Made by a program: the position numbers and the translations under genes. Below the pieces are notes generated by a model. The model saw only the letters and a program-made list of their open reading frames with translations. It made no database searches and was not told where the DNA came from. Positions 2 to 7,763 of a DNA stretch of 37,101 bases are shown in pieces (the stretch's first letter is position 1; every line of letters starts with the position of its first letter). Source of the stretch: Candidatus Gastranaerophilales bacterium (GTDB lineage Bacteria; Cyanobacteriota; Vampirovibrionia; Gastranaerophilales; Gastranaerophilaceae); assembly GCA_944323145.1 (NCBI GenBank), contig CALURJ010000020.1, forward strand, positions 1-37,101, in the 5' to 3' direction.

Positions 2-1306
2 AGCATGGTCAGCAAAAATAAAAAACAAAAAACATCTGATGATTACAAATTCGCTTATATAAATTTGAACTGGTGGGAAAATTTTAACGATGATATTCTT
101 AACAATTATATACAAAAGGCTGTTTTAAATAATTATGACTTAAAAATGGCAACTCTTAATGTTGAAGAATATTATCAAAATGTAAAAGCCCAATTTGCAA
201 ATGAACTTCCTTCAGCAGTCGGAGGTTTCGGGCCGGCATGGTATAAAGCTCCAGGAAGCACAAGTACTGATGCGGCATTTGGTGTTCCTATCATTGTTCA
301 ATATGAAGCAGATATCTTTTTGAAAAACCATAATAAAACACAGGCCGTAAAAAAACTTTACGAAGGTTCAAAACTTGATGAACGCGCAGCTTATATTTCA
401 ATTGCCTCAGCCGTAGGCTCAACATATTTTAACATAATTAATCTCGACAAAATGGTTGAATTGCAGGAAGAAATCGTTAAAATCAGACAGGAAATTTATG
501 ATTTAATGGTAGCAAGCAATAAAGAAGGCTTAACATCTACTGCTGATACCGTCAGAGCGAATAAATCACTGGTTCAAGGCCAAACCGATTTAATTGAGTT
601 GAAGAAAAACAGAGAGCAAATGTTACATCAATTGAGCGTACTTATAGGAGAAAGCCCTGAAAATGCTAATGCTCTTGAAAGAAATTCGCTTGACAATATC
701 AATTACAAAATCGCCGTGCCCTCACAAATTCCTTCCGAAATCATTACTAACAGACCTGATTATCTGAAGGCTGAATTAATGGTTGAAAAAGCGGGAATTG
801 ATGTTAAAGTTGCAAAAAAAGAATTTCTTCCGTCAATCAATATATTAGGCGGAGCAGTCTTTAACGCAGGCGACTTGGGAAGCTTATTTACCACAAAAAA
901 TATGCTTCTGGGGCTTGCAGGCGGAATTATGACACCGTTATTCCAGGGCGGATCGTTAATCGCAAATTTAAGATTGAAAAAAGCTACTTATGAAAGAATT
1001 TTGCAGAACTACTATAAAACAAACCTGACAGCAATTCAGGAAGTTAACGATGCGCTTGTCGCCGCAAAACTCGACAAAGATAAGATGCTTCAAACAGAAC
1101 ATCAATATAATTTGGAAAAAACCGATTATGCATACAACGAACATAAATTTAATCAGGGAACAATTTCCAAACTTGACTTAATTCAATATCAGGAAAACCT
1201 TCTGACTATTGAAAAACTTGTTGCCCAGCAGAAAGTTGAATGCATGACAGATGCAATCAGCTTATACAAAGCAACAGGCAGCAAACCTTATGACTATGTA
1301 AATTAA
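2..1306 (+). CDS. TolC/NodT-like outer membrane efflux factor, 5' partial
   Basis: Outer membrane factor of a tripartite RND or ABC-type exporter, forming the trimeric beta-barrel and periplasmic tunnel. The visible part has the family pattern: a W-x-x-F-N-D-D-I-L start near residue 24, long amphipathic helices, a repeat of the helical hairpin in the second half, and a short conserved stretch TPLFQGGSL about three quarters along. The reading frame is open to the left edge and the first Met is only 4 bases in. The signal peptide or lipobox Cys expected of the NodT family is absent, so the gene almost certainly begins upstream of the window. About 433 residues are visible. The partner membrane-fusion and pump genes would be expected just upstream. 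A strong terminator follows. The family call is firm; the substrate cannot be inferred. Confidence 0.85.
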   Translation, partial: SMVSKNKKQKTSDDYKFAYINLNWWENFNDDILNNYIQKAVLNNYDLKMATLNVEEYYQNVKAQFANELPSAVGGFGPAWYKAPGSTSTDAAFGVPIIVQYEADIFLKNHNKTQAVKKLYEGSKLDERAAYISIASAVGSTYFNIINLDKMVELQEEIVKIRQEIYDLMVASNKEGLTSTADTVRANKSLVQGQTDLIELKKNREQMLHQLSVLIGESPENANALERNSLDNINYKIAVPSQIPSEIITNRPDYLKAELMVEKAGIDVKVAKKEFLPSINILGGAVFNAGDLGSLFTTKNMLLGLAGGIMTPLFQGGSLIANLRLKKATYERILQNYYKTNLTAIQEVNDALVAAKLDKDKMLQTEHQYNLEKTDYAYNEHKFNQGTISKLDLIQYQENLLTIEKLVAQQKVECMTDAISLYKATGSKPYDYVN

Positions 1307-1372
1307 AAATTATGTAAACTAAAATCACATATAATCATCACCTCTTTACTTTAAACGAAATTTAAAGTAATG

Positions 1373-1406
1373 TGCCGGAAATCCTCACTGTTTCCGGCAT
1401 TTTTTT
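1373..1406 (+). terminator. Rho-independent terminator of the efflux gene
   Basis: A perfect 9-bp stem (TGCCGGAAA / TTTCCGGCA) with a 9-nt loop is followed by seven T residues. It lies 66 bp after the efflux stop codon. Confidence 0.9.
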
Positions 1407-1448
1407 GTGCTACGCACGTTGATACATTAAGTTTTTACAAAAAACTTA

Positions 1449-1524
1449 TCCCTCCCTGATTAAGAAGGGTTGGGTATTGATATTGCTACCCATCCTCTTA
1501 TCCTTCCCTAATAAGGGAAGGAAG
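1449..1524 (+). repeat. Dispersed two-hairpin repeat, copy 1
   Basis: About 76 bp containing two palindromes: an imperfect TCCCTCCCTGATTAAG...GGG arm and a perfect 9-bp stem TCCTTCCCT / AGGGAAGGA at 1501-1522. The spacer contains GGGTATTGAT and CATCCT. A second copy lies in opposite orientation at 6404-6480 with the same order of parts. No coding potential is seen. It fills most of the gap between the convergent efflux and prmC genes. Confidence 0.75.
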
Positions 1525-1535
1525 TAGTTAGTTAT

Positions 1536-1578
1536 TGTAAATAGCCTATCTTCTTATCTTCATACCCTATTATCTTCT
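1536..1578 (+). repeat. Dispersed TGTAAATRGCCTATCTTC repeat, copy R1
   Basis: Degenerate copy of a repeat that also occurs at 7120-7148 (inverted) and 19723-19766. All share GCCTATCTTC followed by CATACC and TATCTTC. This copy carries a small insertion and runs into the last codons of prmC. Confidence 0.6.
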
Positions 1579-2418
1579 GAGGGCCAATCTCCCGCTTATA
1601 ACCCTGTCAATTCCTGCAAGGTCTTTAATTATCTCAATATCTGCAAAGCCGTTTTGTTCCATTAAGGATTTAACATCAGCAGCCTGACCTATACCGAGTT
1701 CAAACAGCAAATATCCACTATCGTTCAAAACTCCTGAGGCTTGTTTGGTGATTTCTTCGTAAAACTCAAGTCCCTTTTCATCTTTTGTAAAAAGAGCTTC
1801 TGGGGGGTCAAATTTCACTTCAATCTGAATTTTTTCTTTTTCACAAGGCGGAATGTAAGGGGGGTTAGAAACAATTATATCAAAACTTTCACCCGGTTTT
1901 ACATTTGAAAAAATATCGGATTTTCTAAAAATAGCTTTATTGAAAAGGTTTAGCCTTGAAGCATTATCAAGTGCCGTATTTAAAGCATCCGTTGAAATAT
2001 CAAGCCCGATAATCTGACAGTCAGTATGTTTTGCAATCATACAGGCAATACACCCGGAACCTGTACCGACATCAAGAGCCATTTTAAAATTATTTTTATT
2101 GATAATATCAACAGCTTTTCTTACAAGAATTTCCGTTTCATCACGCGGAATTAAAACAGAAGGATTTACAATAAATTTTTCTCCCATAAAGTCCGCAAAA
2201 CCTGTTATATGCTGTATCGGCTGACGGGTTTTTGCGCGCAAAAGCGCTTTTTCTTTAACTATTTCAAGTTTTTCGGGAGTTAATTTATTACCCATGATAA
2301 TATCTTTTGTGCCGTAGTTTGCAAAATGTTCAAGCAAAAGTTTAACTTCAACATTTGCTTCATTAGGTTCAATACCGTTGTCTGTCAATATTTTCAAAAT
2401 CTCTTGTAAAGTTGTCAT
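1570..2418 (-). CDS. prmC: Peptide chain release factor N5-glutamine methyltransferase PrmC (HemK)
   Basis: SAM-dependent methyltransferase that modifies the GGQ glutamine of release factors 1 and 2 to speed peptide release. The protein has the N-terminal helical domain, the SAM-binding loop DVGTGSGCIA near residue 116, and the diagnostic NPPYIPP catalytic motif near residue 184. Its 282 residues match the family length. The start is placed at ATG 2418 because AAGGAG lies 7 nt upstream; an in-frame TTG two codons earlier is not needed. The start codon overlaps the stop of the upstream hypothetical gene (ATGA), so translation is probably coupled. The Shine-Dalgarno region lies at the edge of a palindromic repeat, so the repeat may have brought in the ribosome-binding site. 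The usual neighbour prfA is absent from the window. Confidence 0.95.
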   Translation of the reverse strand: MTTLQEILKILTDNGIEPNEANVEVKLLLEHFANYGTKDIIMGNKLTPEKLEIVKEKALLRAKTRQPIQHITGFADFMGEKFIVNPSVLIPRDETEILVRKAVDIINKNNFKMALDVGTGSGCIACMIAKHTDCQIIGLDISTDALNTALDNASRLNLFNKAIFRKSDIFSNVKPGESFDIIVSNPPYIPPCEKEKIQIEVKFDPPEALFTKDEKGLEFYEEITKQASGVLNDSGYLLFELGIGQAADVKSLMEQNGFADIEIIKDLAGIDRVISGRLALRR

Positions 2419-2954
2419 AAGCAATCTCCTTCCTTCTCCCCAACGGCGGGAGAAGGTGCCTGTAAGGCGGATGAGGGGGAATAATTATTTAATATCCTGT
2501 CTATCTCATCGCGGGCTTCCAGTTTTGATGTCAGTTCTTTTTTCTCTATATTATATTTTTTGCATAAACGGTCGTAATAATAAAGCTGTTTTTTAGTCGG
2601 CGTTTCTTTTGACATTTTAACTTCACGTAAAAATGCGCGTTTTTTCTTTTCAAATTCTTTCTGCGCCTGAATTATAGGCTCCTGTTTTTTCTTGTAATCG
2701 TAGTATTTACGGCATTCTTTTAAATACAACAATGTTTCATCAAGAAATTTGTCATCATCTAAATAGTTTTCTAGAAATTCAAAATGCGGGTTATTAATTT
2801 CAAAATAGTATCTTTCATCATCAAGAAATTTATCTAAAATATCGTCAACGCTCATATCGGGCGATTTTTTGACAAGCGCGCGCAAAAAATTACACAGAGC
2901 AGACTTCTGTGTTTTTGTCATATCCTGATAAATTTGATTTTTTACCTGATACAT
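2415..2954 (-). CDS. Hypothetical charged helical protein with repeat-encoded C terminus
   Basis: A soluble 179-residue protein, rich in Lys, Asp, Glu and Tyr, with no signal peptide or membrane segment. Two blocks look structured: a helical acidic N-terminal half (residues 1-85) and a basic helical segment containing PTKKQLYYYDRLCKKY near residues 120-135. The last 20 or so residues (SPSSALQAPSPAVGEKEG) are low-complexity and are encoded by a palindromic element at 2432-2480, so the ancestral protein probably ended earlier. The gene overlaps prmC by 4 bp (ATGA) and is likely co-transcribed with it. AAAGG lies upstream of the ATG. I do not recognise the family. The PTKKQ segment resembles short helical motifs of nucleic-acid-binding proteins, but that is weak. 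Confidence 0.7.
   Translation of the reverse strand: MYQVKNQIYQDMTKTQKSALCNFLRALVKKSPDMSVDDILDKFLDDERYYFEINNPHFEFLENYLDDDKFLDETLLYLKECRKYYDYKKKQEPIIQAQKEFEKKKRAFLREVKMSKETPTKKQLYYYDRLCKKYNIEKKELTSKLEARDEIDRILNNYSPSSALQAPSPAVGEKEGDCL
2432..2480. repeat. Palindromic repeat inserted in the 3' end of a coding gene
   Basis: A perfect 9-bp stem (CCTTCTCCC / GGGAGAAGG) with a 7-nt loop is followed by TGCCTGTAAGGCGGATGAGGGG. This is the pattern of widely dispersed bacterial hairpin repeats with a CTCATCCGCC-type tail. It is translated in frame as the tail of the 2415-2954 protein. Confidence 0.7.
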
Positions 2955-3101
2955 ACCGCTACCTTTTTTGGAAATAACATATGTCTTCTCATAATTGAAG
3001 ACTAGAGGTTCAGATGTCAGGAGGTCAAGCCATTATCTGTGCTTCGCACAACAATTAACCTATGTAATTAGCTTGCCTTCCTGCCTTCCGTTCCTCTGAT
3101 A

Positions 3102-3266
3102 TCATTTTTTAAATAAATCTTTCACACTGAATTTAGACATATTTTCTTTATGGAATTCGACAAACTTTTTCGCAATCGGATTTGTTTGGCGGGAAACCGG
3201 TTTTTCAGCCTGTTTTTCTTCGACAGTGGTTTTGTTTTCGATTAACGCTAAATCTCTCTTATCCAT
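3102..3266 (-). CDS. Small basic protein, 54 residues
   Basis: A short open frame beginning MDKRDLALIENKTTVEEKQA and ending FSVKDLFKK, with stop TGA at 3102-3104. GAGGT lies about 11 nt upstream of the ATG and suits a Shine-Dalgarno site. The composition (Lys/Glu-rich, no hydrophobic segment, amphipathic helix from about residue 30) looks like a real small soluble protein. No known family is recognised. It lies alone between the hypothetical gene upstream of prmC and the terminator of the GHKL gene. The evidence is the ribosome-binding site and plausible composition only. Confidence 0.5.
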   Translation of the reverse strand: MDKRDLALIENKTTVEEKQAEKPVSRQTNPIAKKFVEFHKENMSKFSVKDLFKK

Positions 3267-3291
3267 AAAATTATTATACCTCTATATTTAT

Positions 3292-3326
3292 AAAAAAGTA
3301 AGCCTTTAAAAAATTGACTTACTTTT
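3292..3326 (-). terminator. Terminator of the GHKL/metalloprotease gene
   Basis: A 9-bp stem (AAAAGTAAG / CTTACTTTT, 3294-3302 with 3318-3326) encloses a 15-nt loop. On the minus strand it runs into a T tract. It sits 30 bp after the stop codon at 3356. Confidence 0.7.
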
Positions 3327-3355: not shown

Positions 3356-5533
3356 TTACGATAGGTCGTTCCATAACGTATTAAGAGCTTGAAGCTCGCT
3401 GCGGGATATAGGATCATTCATAATCTGAGCAATTGCATCTCTATTTACATTAGTTAGTTTGTAAGAAAACTCTGAAGATTCATCCCCGCCGGCTTTGTGA
3501 GAAAGCTCATGTAGTGCAGTTTCAAGAGCATCCGTAAAACTTGCTCTGTCAAGGTAGCTTTTTTCTATCCAGAAACCTTTTGATTGACCGTTATCAATTA
3601 TTGCTTCAGCCAATGTATCGGAATACATTCTACGCTCTTTTGCAGATGTTTTATCAAAAAGATAAATTTTTGTATCAAGTTCATCAGCCGTAAAATGTTT
3701 ATCTTTCAAAGATGGTGAGAGCTTTTGAATAGCTTCTTTCAAGATAAGTACTTTCTTCTTTTGAATATCGTTCGGTACAACAACTTCATGCGCTCTTGCA
3801 TCACCAATCAGATCTTTTATTGTAGGCATACCAATCTCGTTAAAGTTGGCTTTACATACTCTGTAACCTTTTAATATTAAATCCTCCACAACATCTTCTG
3901 AGGCGTTGGAATAAGCAACATATTTTTCGGGAAACTTAATATGAAGATTTTTTAATCCATTTAAATTTAAATAAAAGAGAAATTTATCTAAAAACTTATC
4001 CATTGGGCTTGGTGGTGTACATTTATCCCAATAATTTTCAAGAGATGTTAATAATTTTATCTTATCGTTATTGCTCATACTAATATCTACTGTCAGCCAA
4101 TGAGCAATACGTTCAAGATTTGATGAAGTCAAAGATGTTCTGTCCCTGGATGGGTAAATAACATCTTTAGGAAGTTTTTCTTTAATATTTATTGCAATTC
4201 CATCCAAACCATCATAATCGTAACCAAATTCAAAACGCTGTCCTGCAATGTAAATTCCGCCTTTTTCACCTTTTGGCAAAATTTTAAGACTCATTAACCC
4301 GTTTTCAAAATCAGGACATTCAAAATGTTTGTTATTTGAATGGTAAAAACGGTTTATTGTATTTTTTAAGGCCTCAAGCAAATCCATATCATCTGTTTCA
4401 AATTCAATATAGTTGCCGTTATAGCTATCCAACTTATCAAGCGAATAAACCATAACCTTTTTATCTGAAAGATTACCTTCTGCAAGAGAGTATGTAAGTT
4501 TCCAGTTATCTGATGCAATTTTAACATCAGCCGCACCGCCGTCACGCAATAATTTTAATACAGATATTTTCAAACCTTCGCCATAATTACCTGCAGCTTT
4601 TCTATTATTGCGTTTTGTTGACTCACCGATATAAACAGCTTTATCCGGAGTATAAGTCGATTTGCCCTCAATTCTGACTTTATAACGTCCGTTTCCTGCC
4701 GGTTCAAAATGCAGTCTTACGCCATCAAGAGTCTGTCCGTGACCATCATAAAAATTCTGCATTATATCTCTTGCAATTTTATTATTGTCCCATCTGACAG
4801 AATCAGCGTAGCTTTCCGAAATATTTGTCACCTGATTATGTACGGGCTTAAAGTCTACACTTGGCATGTGCGTAATCTTAACTTCATCAGACATAGGAAG
4901 TTCAAAATCAAATCTGCCGTCCGGAGAAATTTCAGGCATATCAAGCCCTTTCATGCCTGCTCTGTTTGTTGTGCCGACATGAGATGGTAAAGGAACCGCA
5001 TCCTCATAAATACGCACGTTTTTGCCTTTTGCAGGAGGAGTTAAAATATCATAACCGGGGTCGCATTTTTCTATTTTAGCTTTCAAATCGTTAAAAATCT
5101 TTGTACGAATTTCGTCCGGTGTAAAACCTTTTTCGAAAATATCATTTAAAGTATTTCTTGCTCTTTGGATTTGGGCATTTAAAGATTTGTTATCAATTGT
5201 TAGATTGTTAAAACTTTTCTCAAGAGTTTCAAGTGACTTTTTAACCGGTTCACTTTCTCCGAGAACTTCGGCAAGTTCTCTTTTGAGACTGCCAATTTCC
5301 CAACCATTACGCCAATGCATAACTGCACCGCCTAATACAGCAGCAGATAATGCCATGGTAATAGCAGCAGATGATGAAACATATTTCTTTGAGGACTTTT
5401 TATCATCTTTTTTACTGCCAATTTGGGCGCCGGTTTCGCTACTTTGTAAATTTTCTTTTTTTAAAGCACTGTCTGCAAGAAAATTTACATTTGTTTTTAC
5501 AAAAATTTTGTTACTAACCGGAGCTACATACAT
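3356..5533 (-). CDS. Membrane-anchored GHKL-type ATPase domain fused to an HExxH metallopeptidase-like domain
   Basis: A 725-residue protein with an unusual domain order. Residues 1-20 hold a short leader with NVNF. A single hydrophobic segment lies at about 54-72, followed by a coiled coil at about 80-135. Residues 250-400 look like a Bergerat-fold (GHKL) ATPase: an N-box-like ARDIMQNFYDG (254-264, candidate Mg ligand N260), YIGESTKRNN (301-310), then a glycine lid AGNYGEGLK (314-322). The usual DxGxG G1 motif is not obvious. Residues 672-679 are TALHELSH, a zincin HExxH motif (H675, E676, H679) followed by AGGD and acidic residues that could supply a third ligand. AAAGGA lies about 10 nt before the ATG. 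The gene stands alone with its own terminator. I know of no characterised protein with this architecture; the domain calls are by motif only. Confidence 0.7.
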   Translation of the reverse strand: MYVAPVSNKIFVKTNVNFLADSALKKENLQSSETGAQIGSKKDDKKSSKKYVSSSAAITMALSAAVLGGAVMHWRNGWEIGSLKRELAEVLGESEPVKKSLETLEKSFNNLTIDNKSLNAQIQRARNTLNDIFEKGFTPDEIRTKIFNDLKAKIEKCDPGYDILTPPAKGKNVRIYEDAVPLPSHVGTTNRAGMKGLDMPEISPDGRFDFELPMSDEVKITHMPSVDFKPVHNQVTNISESYADSVRWDNNKIARDIMQNFYDGHGQTLDGVRLHFEPAGNGRYKVRIEGKSTYTPDKAVYIGESTKRNNRKAAGNYGEGLKISVLKLLRDGGAADVKIASDNWKLTYSLAEGNLSDKKVMVYSLDKLDSYNGNYIEFETDDMDLLEALKNTINRFYHSNNKHFECPDFENGLMSLKILPKGEKGGIYIAGQRFEFGYDYDGLDGIAINIKEKLPKDVIYPSRDRTSLTSSNLERIAHWLTVDISMSNNDKIKLLTSLENYWDKCTPPSPMDKFLDKFLFYLNLNGLKNLHIKFPEKYVAYSNASEDVVEDLILKGYRVCKANFNEIGMPTIKDLIGDARAHEVVVPNDIQKKKVLILKEAIQKLSPSLKDKHFTADELDTKIYLFDKTSAKERRMYSDTLAEAIIDNGQSKGFWIEKSYLDRASFTDALETALHELSHKAGGDESSEFSYKLTNVNRDAIAQIMNDPISRSELQALNTLWNDLS

Positions 5534-5624
5534 TTTTAATTTTCCTTTCTGCTTAGAAATTAAAAAACTAAAATTAATTATATTTGATATTATTTTAACA
5601 TTTATTAAGTTTATATTTAAAATA

Positions 5625-6556: not shown

Positions 6557-7038
6557 TGTGAGTAAATATATATTAATAAGATCTGTAAGACATAATTATG
6601 AGAAGAAAATGTTATCAAGTGTACTGAATTCAGGAGAATTAAATAAAGCTGCTATATTATCTTCTGTTTCAATATCTGTCATAACTTTTGAAACCTGAGT
6701 TACAGAAGCGCCGATTCTTTCATAAACCGTTTTTGAAGGCATACGGTTTTTGCCGAGTCCTGCCATTGCAAAAAGCTGTTCCAAATCAGCAGCATCTTCT
6801 TTCGGCACAATACCTTGAGATGATACAAAATTAACTTTTGCATACGGCTGTTCAAGTAACTTTTCACCTAACTCTTTTGTAGCTGCCTGCTGAGCATTTG
6901 CTTTAACTTCTTCTACCTGCTGTTTTTCACCTTTTGAAGCTCTCAAAGCTTCATAATAAGCTTTCAAAGCTGTCAAATCCTGCTGTTTGTTTCCTGTAAT
7001 TTTTTCTGACATTTCCACTTCTCCATATTTTACTCACA
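6557..7038 (-). repeat. Complementary UTR motif pair flanking small gene A
   Basis: TGTGAGTAAAT at 6557-6567, downstream of the stop codon, and ATTTTACTCACA at 7027-7038, in the 5' leader, form an inverted pair. Ten positions are identical, followed by a one-base gap. In the mRNA the 5' copy sits just before the Shine-Dalgarno site and the 3' copy between stop codon and terminator. The paralogous gene at 7319 has the same arrangement. Confidence 0.6.
6596..7012 (-). CDS. Small acidic protein A, paralogue of the 7319-7735 protein
   Basis: A 138-residue soluble protein of no family I recognise. The N-terminal half is Lys/Glu/Gln/Ala-rich and probably helical or disordered. The C-terminal 65 residues form the conserved domain: DLEQLFAMAGLGKNR, a Tyr-containing helix, then ALFNSPEFSTLDNIF at the end. 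The neighbour at 7319-7735 has the matching pattern DLDQLAQLIGI...ALFKSSEFGTLNTLF. The start is ATG 7012 with GGAGAA upstream; a GTG two codons earlier is less well placed. Its leader and 3' UTR share complementary motifs with its paralogue. No signal peptide or membrane segment is visible. Confidence 0.75.
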   Translation of the reverse strand: MSEKITGNKQQDLTALKAYYEALRASKGEKQQVEEVKANAQQAATKELGEKLLEQPYAKVNFVSSQGIVPKEDAADLEQLFAMAGLGKNRMPSKTVYERIGASVTQVSKVMTDIETEDNIAALFNSPEFSTLDNIFFS

Positions 7039-7292: not shown

Positions 7293-7763
7293 TTGTGAGT
7301 AAAATTATTGTTTTTTTTTTAAGAAATACCAAATAAAGTATTTAATGTTCCAAATTCGGATGATTTAAACAATGCTTCCGCATTGCTGGTTGTCGTAAAA
7401 TCATCCATTAGTCCTGCAAATTCTACAACAGATTTTTTTATTCTGTCATAACCAGTCTGCGTTACTGAAATATTTTTTATACCTATAAGTTGTGCAAGCT
7501 GATCCAAATCTTCCATATCAGTTTTATCAAGTCTTACAGCCCCTTCGACTTCCAAACCTCTAATCTGGTCAGCCTGCTGTTTTGACCCTACATTAAAAGT
7601 AAATTCTGTTGATGAAGTTTCTGTTGTTGGAGCAGTTTGTTCTGTTCTAACAGATTTATCTGTTCTGCCTACGTTTAATGAATTCTGTCCAAAATAAACA
7701 TTTTTCATTCCATCATTTCCATTAATTCTTGTCATTTCCTGTTCTCCGTTATTTTACTCACAA
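7293..7763 (-). repeat. Complementary UTR motif pair flanking small gene B
   Basis: TTGTGAGTAAAAT at 7293-7305 (3' UTR) and ATTTTACTCACAA at 7751-7763 (5' leader) are a perfect 13-nt inverted pair. In the mRNA the two UTRs could base-pair, with the 5' copy ending a few nt before GGAGAA. Confidence 0.65.
7319..7735 (-). CDS. Small acidic protein B, paralogue of the 6596-7012 protein
   Basis: A 138-residue protein with an N-terminal NVYFGQ segment, a Thr/Ser/Glu-rich linker (about residues 25-55), and a C-terminal conserved domain containing DLDQLAQLIGI, a Tyr-Asp-Arg helix and ALFKSSEFGTLNTLF. The last 60 or so residues align with protein A. No known family is recognised. The ATG is preceded by GGAGAACAGGAA, and the whole leader TGTGAGTAAAATA-GGAGAA--GGAAATG is shared with gene A, which supports both start sites. 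No export signal is clear. The pair probably arose by tandem duplication with UTRs included. Confidence 0.75.
   Translation of the reverse strand: MTRINGNDGMKNVYFGQNSLNVGRTDKSVRTEQTAPTTETSSTEFTFNVGSKQQADQIRGLEVEGAVRLDKTDMEDLDQLAQLIGIKNISVTQTGYDRIKKSVVEFAGLMDDFTTTSNAEALFKSSEFGTLNTLFGIS

What the first reader, a model, noticed from the sequence alone, without database searches (positions are those of the whole stretch)
3356..5533. GHKL-type ATPase joined to a zinc metallopeptidase motif behind a membrane anchor
One polypeptide combines a transmembrane segment, coiled coil, Bergerat-like motifs (ARDIMQNFYDG, NYGEGLK) and a C-terminal HELSH motif followed by AGGD. GHKL ATPases usually drive conformational clamps (MutL, Hsp90, MORC) or kinases. 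Coupling to a protease in one chain suggests an ATP-gated protease or a secreted effector. The N-terminal NVNF motif resembles the NVYFGQ start of small protein B and may be a shared sorting or processing signal.
Basis: partly seen in the sequence, partly recalled or inferred. Interest (0 to 1): 0.7.

Follow-up and report, generated by a model that had tools for sequence, protein, structure and literature searches.

The report
Membrane-anchored GHKL ATPase–zinc protease fusion
A gut relative of the cyanobacteria carries a membrane-anchored protein in which an Hsp90/gyrase-type ATP-binding module is joined to a zinc-protease domain; the same two-part design turns up in uncharacterised phage proteins, so it is probably a previously undescribed nucleotide-controlled protease.

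Summary
The 725-aa ORF at 3356-5533 (-) has a transmembrane segment, a probable coiled coil, a GHKL N-box and G2 box, and HELSH+GGD. AlphaFold models of residues 233-725 (pLDDT 84) and 535-725 (pLDDT 90) match GHKL+S5 proteins (TRAP1/Hsp90, topoisomerase VI-B, MORC2) and the Wss1/selecase zincin fold. Residues 233-725 recur across Gastranaerophilales (Vampirovibrionia): alone behind a membrane anchor, or twice in giant proteins whose second copy has lost HExxH. All 27 HExxH copies read HExxH-x4-Asp. Phage proteins share the design: Exiguobacterium vB_EalM-132, Moorella MTATph1, and 7 of 18 IMG/VR relatives. Their GHKL half is phrog_6077 (function unknown); Pfam, NCBIfam and PADLOC have no model. 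The protein is therefore most likely a nucleotide-gated membrane metalloprotease, comparable in logic to GHKL-nuclease Shedu (VcSduA) and in GHKL half to phage RIIA. ATP hydrolysis is doubtful: the N-box Glu is Asp in every bacterial copy and the G1 Asp is missing. The proposed NVNF sorting signal is only weakly supported. Nothing here shows catalysis, ATP binding, topology or substrate.

The parts
3356..5533 (-). whole CDS, 725 aa, GHKL-S5-zincin membrane protein
   Evidence: ORF; orthologues at 45-78% identity in related genomes
5543..5547 (-). putative ribosome-binding site AAGGA, 9 nt before the ATG
   Evidence: sequence; inference
5480..5491 (-). NVNF (residues 15-18), first part of the N-terminal xFx[AG] element
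   Evidence: equivalent VNFQAK/PDFQAR/VKFSAQ/VEFSAR in orthologues; enrichment weak
5312..5374 (-). transmembrane segment, about residues 54-74
   Evidence: Kyte-Doolittle maximum, conserved in position in the single-module orthologues
5114..5302 (-). probable coiled coil, residues 78-140
   Evidence: 78% hydrophobic a/d positions in best register; weak YabA match
4334..4816 (-). GHKL (Bergerat-type) nucleotide-binding domain, about residues 240-400
   Evidence: AF2 model; Foldseek TRAP1 1.7e-8, GRP94, topo VI-B; VIA Z 11-12; phrog_6077 3.1e-12
4742..4774 (-). N-box ARDIMQNFYDG (254-264); D256 stands where GHKL enzymes have the catalytic Glu, N260 and D263 kept
   Evidence: invariant in 36 modules; Glu in phage relatives
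4568..4588 (-). G2 box NYGEGLK (316-322)
   Evidence: GxxGEG invariant in 36 modules and in the phage relatives aligned
4004..4321 (-). S5/transducer domain, about residues 405-510
   Evidence: VIA alignments to topo VI-B, MORC2, GyrB, topo II run to model residue ~276 = window residue ~508
4139..4147 (-). RDR (463-465), candidate gamma-phosphate contact from the S5 domain
   Evidence: invariant in the alignment of bacterial and phage members A3; role inferred from GHKL-S5 enzymes
3401..3784 (-). WLM/SprT-like zincin domain, residues 584-711
   Evidence: AF2 pLDDT 90; VIA: Wss1 Z 9.7, rmsd 2.8 over 108 residues, selecase Z 7.0; Foldseek top hits selecase, Wss1
3482..3511 (-). HELSHKAGGD (675-684): two His ligands, catalytic Glu676, candidate third ligand Asp684
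   Evidence: HExxH followed by Asp at +9 in all 27 bacterial active copies, and +9 or +11 in all 9 phage copies

Best explanation
The protein is a membrane-anchored, nucleotide-controlled metalloprotease. Shown by computation: residues ~240-510 adopt a GHKL ATP-binding domain followed by an S5 transducer domain, and residues ~584-711 adopt a compact WLM/SprT-like zincin fold with HExxH-x4-Asp. Inferred: ligand binding in the GHKL pocket, with the coiled coil and a membrane anchor bringing subunits together, closes a dimeric clamp as in topoisomerase VI, MORC and Hsp90. That closure positions or unmasks the zinc protease at the end of each arm, so that a captured substrate is cut. The logic is that of GHKL-gated effectors such as VcSduA, where a GHKL module is proposed to control a nuclease. 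Also inferred: the family shares ancestry with phage proteins of the same architecture, and was elaborated in Vampirovibrionia by adding a membrane anchor, or by duplication inside giant proteins in which the second copy has become a pseudo-protease. The substrate is unknown. The patchy distribution and occasional broken copies point to an accessory role, such as phage-host conflict or membrane-linked protein quality control, rather than housekeeping.
For: AF2 models of good confidence. Fold matches to TRAP1/Hsp90, topo VI-B and MORC2 for the first half and to Wss1, selecase and SPRTN for the second. Viral-structure search: the best hit, a 437-aa protein at E 1.3e-19, aligns over 497 columns, i.e. 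both domains, followed by many RIIA proteins. N-box Asn, GxxGEG and RDR conserved in bacterial and phage members. HExxH-x4/6-D in 27 bacterial and 9 phage copies. Purifying selection, dN/dS 0.15-0.21. Same architecture in Exiguobacterium and Moorella phages and in 7 of 18 IMG/VR phage relatives. Analogous GHKL-effector logic proposed for VcSduA (PMC12137116).
Against: N-box catalytic Glu is Asp in every bacterial module and the G1 Asp is not recognisable, so ATP turnover may be slow or absent. The third zinc ligand (Asp684) is inferred from conservation only; no coordinates could be inspected. Topology is undecided: flanking charges are mixed among orthologues, and a periplasmic or secreted GHKL domain would have no ATP. 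Many phage relatives lack the protease, so the GHKL half has a role of its own. No experimental data.
Confidence: 0.5

Rival explanations
1. RIIA-like membrane/conflict factor: the GHKL-S5 part is the active principle, a phage-type membrane-associated exclusion or protection factor as in T4 rIIA, and the protease domain is a modular tail for substrate recognition or cleavage during phage-host conflict.
For: Many RIIA proteins among the best viral structural matches. Phage relatives sit among replication genes and often lack the protease. Membrane anchor. Patchy distribution, 25 of 58 related genomes, with a split copy and a copy with stops. RIIA described as GHKL plus variable C-terminus in counter-defence (PMC7824862).
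Against: No PADLOC match. RIIA matches align poorly, with long gapped alignments and TM about 0.3, and none was shown to carry HExxH. No defence genes were recognised beside the orthologues in the loci tabulated. HExxH is kept under purifying selection in every single-module copy.
Confidence: 0.25
2. Secreted or surface-delivered effector: the N-terminal FxA element plus hydrophobic segment is an export signal, and the protein or its giant relatives act outside the cell on neighbours or host; the GHKL domain would be active only after delivery into a cytosol.
For: Giant relatives with an EF-hand-like N-terminus and tandem modules; N-terminal motif followed by a Lys-rich stretch and hydrophobic segment resembles an extended signal.
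Against: Motif enrichment weak and not replicated with the fixed pattern. No cleavage site or secretion gene identified next to it. A GHKL domain needs cytosolic ATP.
Confidence: 0.15
3. Degenerate nucleotide sensor: the GHKL domain no longer hydrolyses ATP and binds another ligand, or acts as a rigid scaffold, while the protease is constitutively active or inhibited by a partner.
For: E to D in the N-box in 36 of 36 modules and missing G1 Asp, while canonical Glu and, in some, DxGxG persist in phage relatives. An optional upstream basic, C-tail-anchored partner exists in some genomes.
Against: N260, GxxGEG and S5 RDR are conserved over large divergence, which argues for a working phosphate-binding site.
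Confidence: 0.25

Closest known systems
phrog_6077 phage proteins of unknown function, incl. Exiguobacterium phage vB_EalM-132 (AYP68649.1) and Moorella phage MTATph1 (WPA89660.1)
   Same: GHKL-S5 core, G2 GxFGEG, RDR motif; these two and 7 of 18 IMG/VR relatives also end in HExxH-x4/6-D
   Different: No transmembrane anchor or coiled coil seen in the sequences read; ~400-450 aa; N-box Glu intact; some with canonical G1; many lack the protease
VcSduA (Shedu type I with N-terminal GHKL ATPase; PMC12137116)
   Same: N-terminal GHKL module proposed to control a C-terminal degradative domain; predicted dimeric clamp
   Different: C-terminal domain is a PD-(D/E)xK nuclease, not a protease; motifs I-IV conserved; no membrane anchor mentioned in the passages read
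Phage RIIA (T4 rIIA family)
   Same: Membrane-associated GHKL protein with a variable C-terminus; among best viral structural matches
   Different: No HExxH protease domain shown; longer; sequence similarity not detectable by the searches run
Wss1 / SPRTN (WLM/SprT metalloproteases)
   Same: Zincin fold: Wss1 Z 9.7, rmsd 2.8 over 108 residues; aligned HELTHNVHGEHDSSF vs HELSHKAGGDESSEF
   Different: Third-ligand His replaced by Asp one residue earlier; no DNA-binding or SUMO/ubiquitin modules; sequence match below significance (Pfam WLM in 2 of 36 members, E 0.008)
MORC2 / topoisomerase VI-B / Hsp90 (GHKL-S5 ATPases)
   Same: GHKL followed by S5 transducer domain (VIA Z 11-12)
   Different: Catalytic N-box Glu and G1 Asp not conserved here; protease instead of DNA- or client-binding domains

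Membership tests
GHKL (Bergerat-fold) superfamily | Bergerat fold | tested here: met
   AF2 model; Foldseek TRAP1 1.7e-8, 35 PDB chains at E<=0.001 led by Hsp90, topo and MORC2; VIA Z up to 12.0, rmsd 4.6 over 237 residues
GHKL (Bergerat-fold) superfamily | N-box Glu...Asn | tested here: not met
   Asn260 kept but Glu is Asp256 in 36 of 36 modules; so it is filed as GHKL-like by fold and not claimed as a proven GHKL ATPase
GHKL (Bergerat-fold) superfamily | G1 box DxGxG | tested here: not met
   IEGKSTY / SGEGHYD in place of it; canonical DDGPG in Moorella phage
GHKL (Bergerat-fold) superfamily | G2 box GxxGxG | tested here: met
   G71, G83, G86-E87-G88 invariant
GHKL (Bergerat-fold) superfamily | ATP binding and hydrolysis | not testable with these tools
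   needs biochemistry
Zincin metallopeptidases (HExxH) | HExxH on a helix within the zincin fold | tested here: met
   HELSH lies in the predicted helix 132-147 of the model; leading fold matches are zincins
Zincin metallopeptidases (HExxH) | third metal ligand | tested here: inconclusive
   Asp at +9/+11 from first His invariant in 36 sequences; geometry not inspectable
Zincin metallopeptidases (HExxH) | proteolytic activity | not testable with these tools
   needs biochemistry
WLM/SprT (Wss1, SPRTN) | HExxHxxxxxH with third His | tested here: not met
   position +10 from the first His is variable and never His in the 27 bacterial copies; 'works like', not 'is a' Wss1
RIIA | sequence relationship to T4 rIIA | tested here: inconclusive
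   structural neighbours only; phrog_6077 is a separate unnamed family
Shedu (VcSduA-type) | DUF4263 nuclease | tested here: not met
   no Pfam DUF4263 match; C-terminal domain is a zincin

The most novel reading that the evidence does not exclude
A new class of enzyme shared by phages and Vampirovibrionia: a GHKL-S5 molecular clamp that directly switches a covalently linked zinc protease, with a clade-specific E to D change in the ATPase site and an Asp-type third zinc ligand; in giant proteins a catalytically dead second copy pairs with the active one in a single chain.
Probability: 0.35. Interest if true: 0.8.

Novelty: new variant of a known kind. Interest (0 to 1): 0.55.

Why it matters
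GHKL modules are known to drive topoisomerases, chaperones, kinases, mismatch repair and, recently, a defence nuclease. A GHKL module coupled in cis to a protease would add a proteolytic output to this switch, and the phage versions offer soluble 440-aa enzymes on which nucleotide control of proteolysis can be tested at once. It also gives a first functional handle on phrog_6077, an unnamed family found in many phages, and on giant unannotated proteins of uncultured gut Gastranaerophilales.

Tried and rejected
Sequence searches against PDB found nothing significant for the single protein and only low-significance or unrelated matches for profiles; TIM-barrel, RGS and P-glycoprotein matches are composition artefacts. 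YabA/coiled-coil Pfam and NCBIfam matches cover only the coiled coil. PADLOC: none. Plasmids: none. The one IMG/VR relative found with the bacterial alignment (L058) is a host giant gene at a prophage edge, not a phage gene. A viral-contig scan with the single Exiguobacterium phage protein gave nothing; the alignment A3 gave 19 loci, one of them again L058's contig. The MxIxPI...FxA N-terminal signature looked strong in the sample it was derived from (5 vs 0.41 expected) but not in unseen sequence (1 vs 0.26); the looser [VI]xF[SKTQ]G gave OR 3.9, p 0.027 in the unseen set only, so the sorting-signal idea is left open. A common upstream partner is missing from the window's genome, so it is not an obligate partner. 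Paper searches for GHKL with metallopeptidase/HExxH found no description of this fusion; the library is open-access only.

Full report
The ORF. Window 3356-5533 on the minus strand encodes 725 aa from ATG, with AAGGA 9 nt upstream. The window lies on contig C20 of a 1.885 Mb, 99.95% complete genome. Relatives of the protein come mostly from Candidatus Gastranaerophilales records, so the source is a non-photosynthetic gut cyanobacterial relative (Vampirovibrionia). HExxH is expected 0.017 times by chance in such a protein.

Family membership by sequence. Pfam, NCBIfam, PADLOC and the PDB sequences give no meaningful match for the whole protein or its domains. The only significant match is phrog_6077, a phage family of unknown function, to the GHKL half (E 3.1e-12; 29 of 36 module sequences).

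Relatives. In 58 related genomes 25 have a match; in 194 genomes across the phylum 26 do, all of the same family. The more sensitive phrog_6077 profile also hits other families of the class, one of them with HEITHKYGGD. Two architectures occur. Single-module orthologues (L031-L039, L054) keep the membrane segment and coiled coil. Giant proteins (1,185 to 4,366 residues in the open frames reported) carry the residue 233-725 module twice. In all second copies that could be aligned, HExxH is gone while the GHKL residues stay. One orthologue is split into two frames and another holds stop codons. The gene sits beside different core genes in different genomes (dnaN-like, recJ-like, der-like, bioD-like, names partly from resemblance to window ORFs and partly from my knowledge). 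It is thus accessory, but it evolves under purifying selection where present (dN/dS 0.15-0.21 between whole single-module genes, 0.08-0.10 for tandem modules).

Structure. AlphaFold on alignment A1 gave mean pLDDT 84. Foldseek against PDB ranks TRAP1, GRP94, Hsp90, topoisomerase VI-B and MORC2 first (E 1.7e-8 to 1e-4). VIA-align gives Z 11-12 for topo VI-B, MORC2, GyrB and topo II over model residues 6-277, that is GHKL plus the S5 transducer domain. The C-terminal 191 residues modelled alone (pLDDT 90) match Wss1 at Z 9.7 (rmsd 2.8 over 108 residues), S. pombe Wss1 9.0, selecase 7.0 and SPRTN 6.0; Foldseek E-values are weak (best 0.004), but nearly all leading hits are zincins. HELSH lies on the predicted active-site helix. 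A profile alignment to S. pombe Wss1 (HELTHNVHGEHDSSF, not significant, E 0.9) shows the same spacing to the following Phe.

Active sites. In 36 modules the N-box reads R-D-x-x-Q-N-F-x-D: Asn260 and Asp263 are invariant, but the catalytic Glu of GHKL enzymes is Asp256. Phage relatives have Glu. The G1 DxGxG is not recognisable in bacterial copies; some phage copies have it (DDGPG in the Moorella phage). GxxGEG and an S5-domain RDR are invariant in the alignment A3 of bacterial and phage members. I infer a functional phosphate-binding pocket but doubtful hydrolysis. For the protease, HExxH is followed by Asp at exactly +9 in all 27 bacterial active copies, and at +9 or +11 in all 9 phage copies. 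This Asp is the best candidate for the third metal ligand, in place of the third His of WLM/SprT enzymes.

Phage members. tblastn finds GHKL relatives in 36 to 71 phage records. In annotated records they sit near primase, polymerase, ligase, helicase or SSB genes. The Exiguobacterium phage vB_EalM-132 (437 aa) and Moorella phage MTATph1 (446 aa) proteins have GHKL, S5 and HExxH. So do 7 of 18 phage-type IMG/VR relatives (L162-L166, L168, L172). The fusion is therefore not an oddity of one bacterium. The best viral-structure match is a 437-aa protein (E 1.3e-19, 497 columns) whose length equals that of the Exiguobacterium phage protein (identity not confirmed); many RIIA proteins follow.

Mechanism. 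The best reading is a nucleotide-controlled clamp that positions or unmasks a zinc protease, tied to the membrane. The published analogue is VcSduA, in which a GHKL domain is proposed to control a nuclease (PMC12137116). RIIA, a GHKL protein with variable C-terminus in phage conflict (PMC7824862), is the nearest functional setting. Steps shown: folds, motifs, conservation, distribution. Steps inferred: ligand, dimerisation, gating, zinc ligands, topology (charges either side of the membrane segment are mixed among orthologues) and substrate.

The sorting-signal idea. Orthologues carry VNFQAK, PDFQAR, VKFSAQ, VEFSAR and similar near the start, and comparable FxG/FxA starts are visible in other hypothetical proteins of the genome. 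A fixed pattern derived from the first sample did not replicate in unseen sequence, and a looser one reached p 0.027. I regard this as open.

Verdict. Observation confirmed, interpretation partly supported. The domains are known kinds; their fusion appears undescribed in the libraries and open papers searched, and it is shared with phages. New variant of a known kind (GHKL-controlled effector), interest 0.55.

Noticed in passing
L036:4872-5963, L031:4890-5921, L032:4796-5800, L033:4802-5761: A 319-363 aa basic protein with a hydrophobic C-terminal tail lies about 40-65 bp upstream of the gene on the same strand in several relatives; absent from the window's genome and found away from the gene in one genome. 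Possible partner or substrate.
   Followed up: partly
window 5480-5491; also e.g. L084, L085, L126, L132, L134 (own genome): Short xFx[AG] element near the N-terminus of unrelated hypothetical proteins, often after an Asn-rich leader and sometimes before a Lys-rich stretch plus hydrophobic segment; resembles an extended signal region; statistics weak.
   Followed up: partly
L040-L052, L055, L058:3296-10489: Giant Gastranaerophilales proteins with two tandem GHKL-zincin modules; first copy active, second without HExxH; EF-hand-like N-terminus in L058.
   Followed up: partly
L107, L116 (G266, G276): Class-level relatives have two tandem GHKL modules ending in EEKAHQLSGA(S/P)D: the first His of HExxH is Glu, the rest of the phage-type motif is kept.
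   Followed up: no
L058 (IMG/VR 3300011989_000363), 304-3296: Tail-sheath-like protein, then an integrase-like ORF, then a host giant gene: a prophage boundary inside a contig listed as viral.
   Followed up: no
window 6596-7018 and 7319-7735: Two small proteins with similar C-terminal halves, neighbours of lepA, conserved in the same order in L036; no family above Pfam cut-off.
   Followed up: no
L037 / G018:C3:19885-21965: Orthologue split into two overlapping frames (267 + 472 aa), a decayed or frameshifted copy.
   Followed up: no
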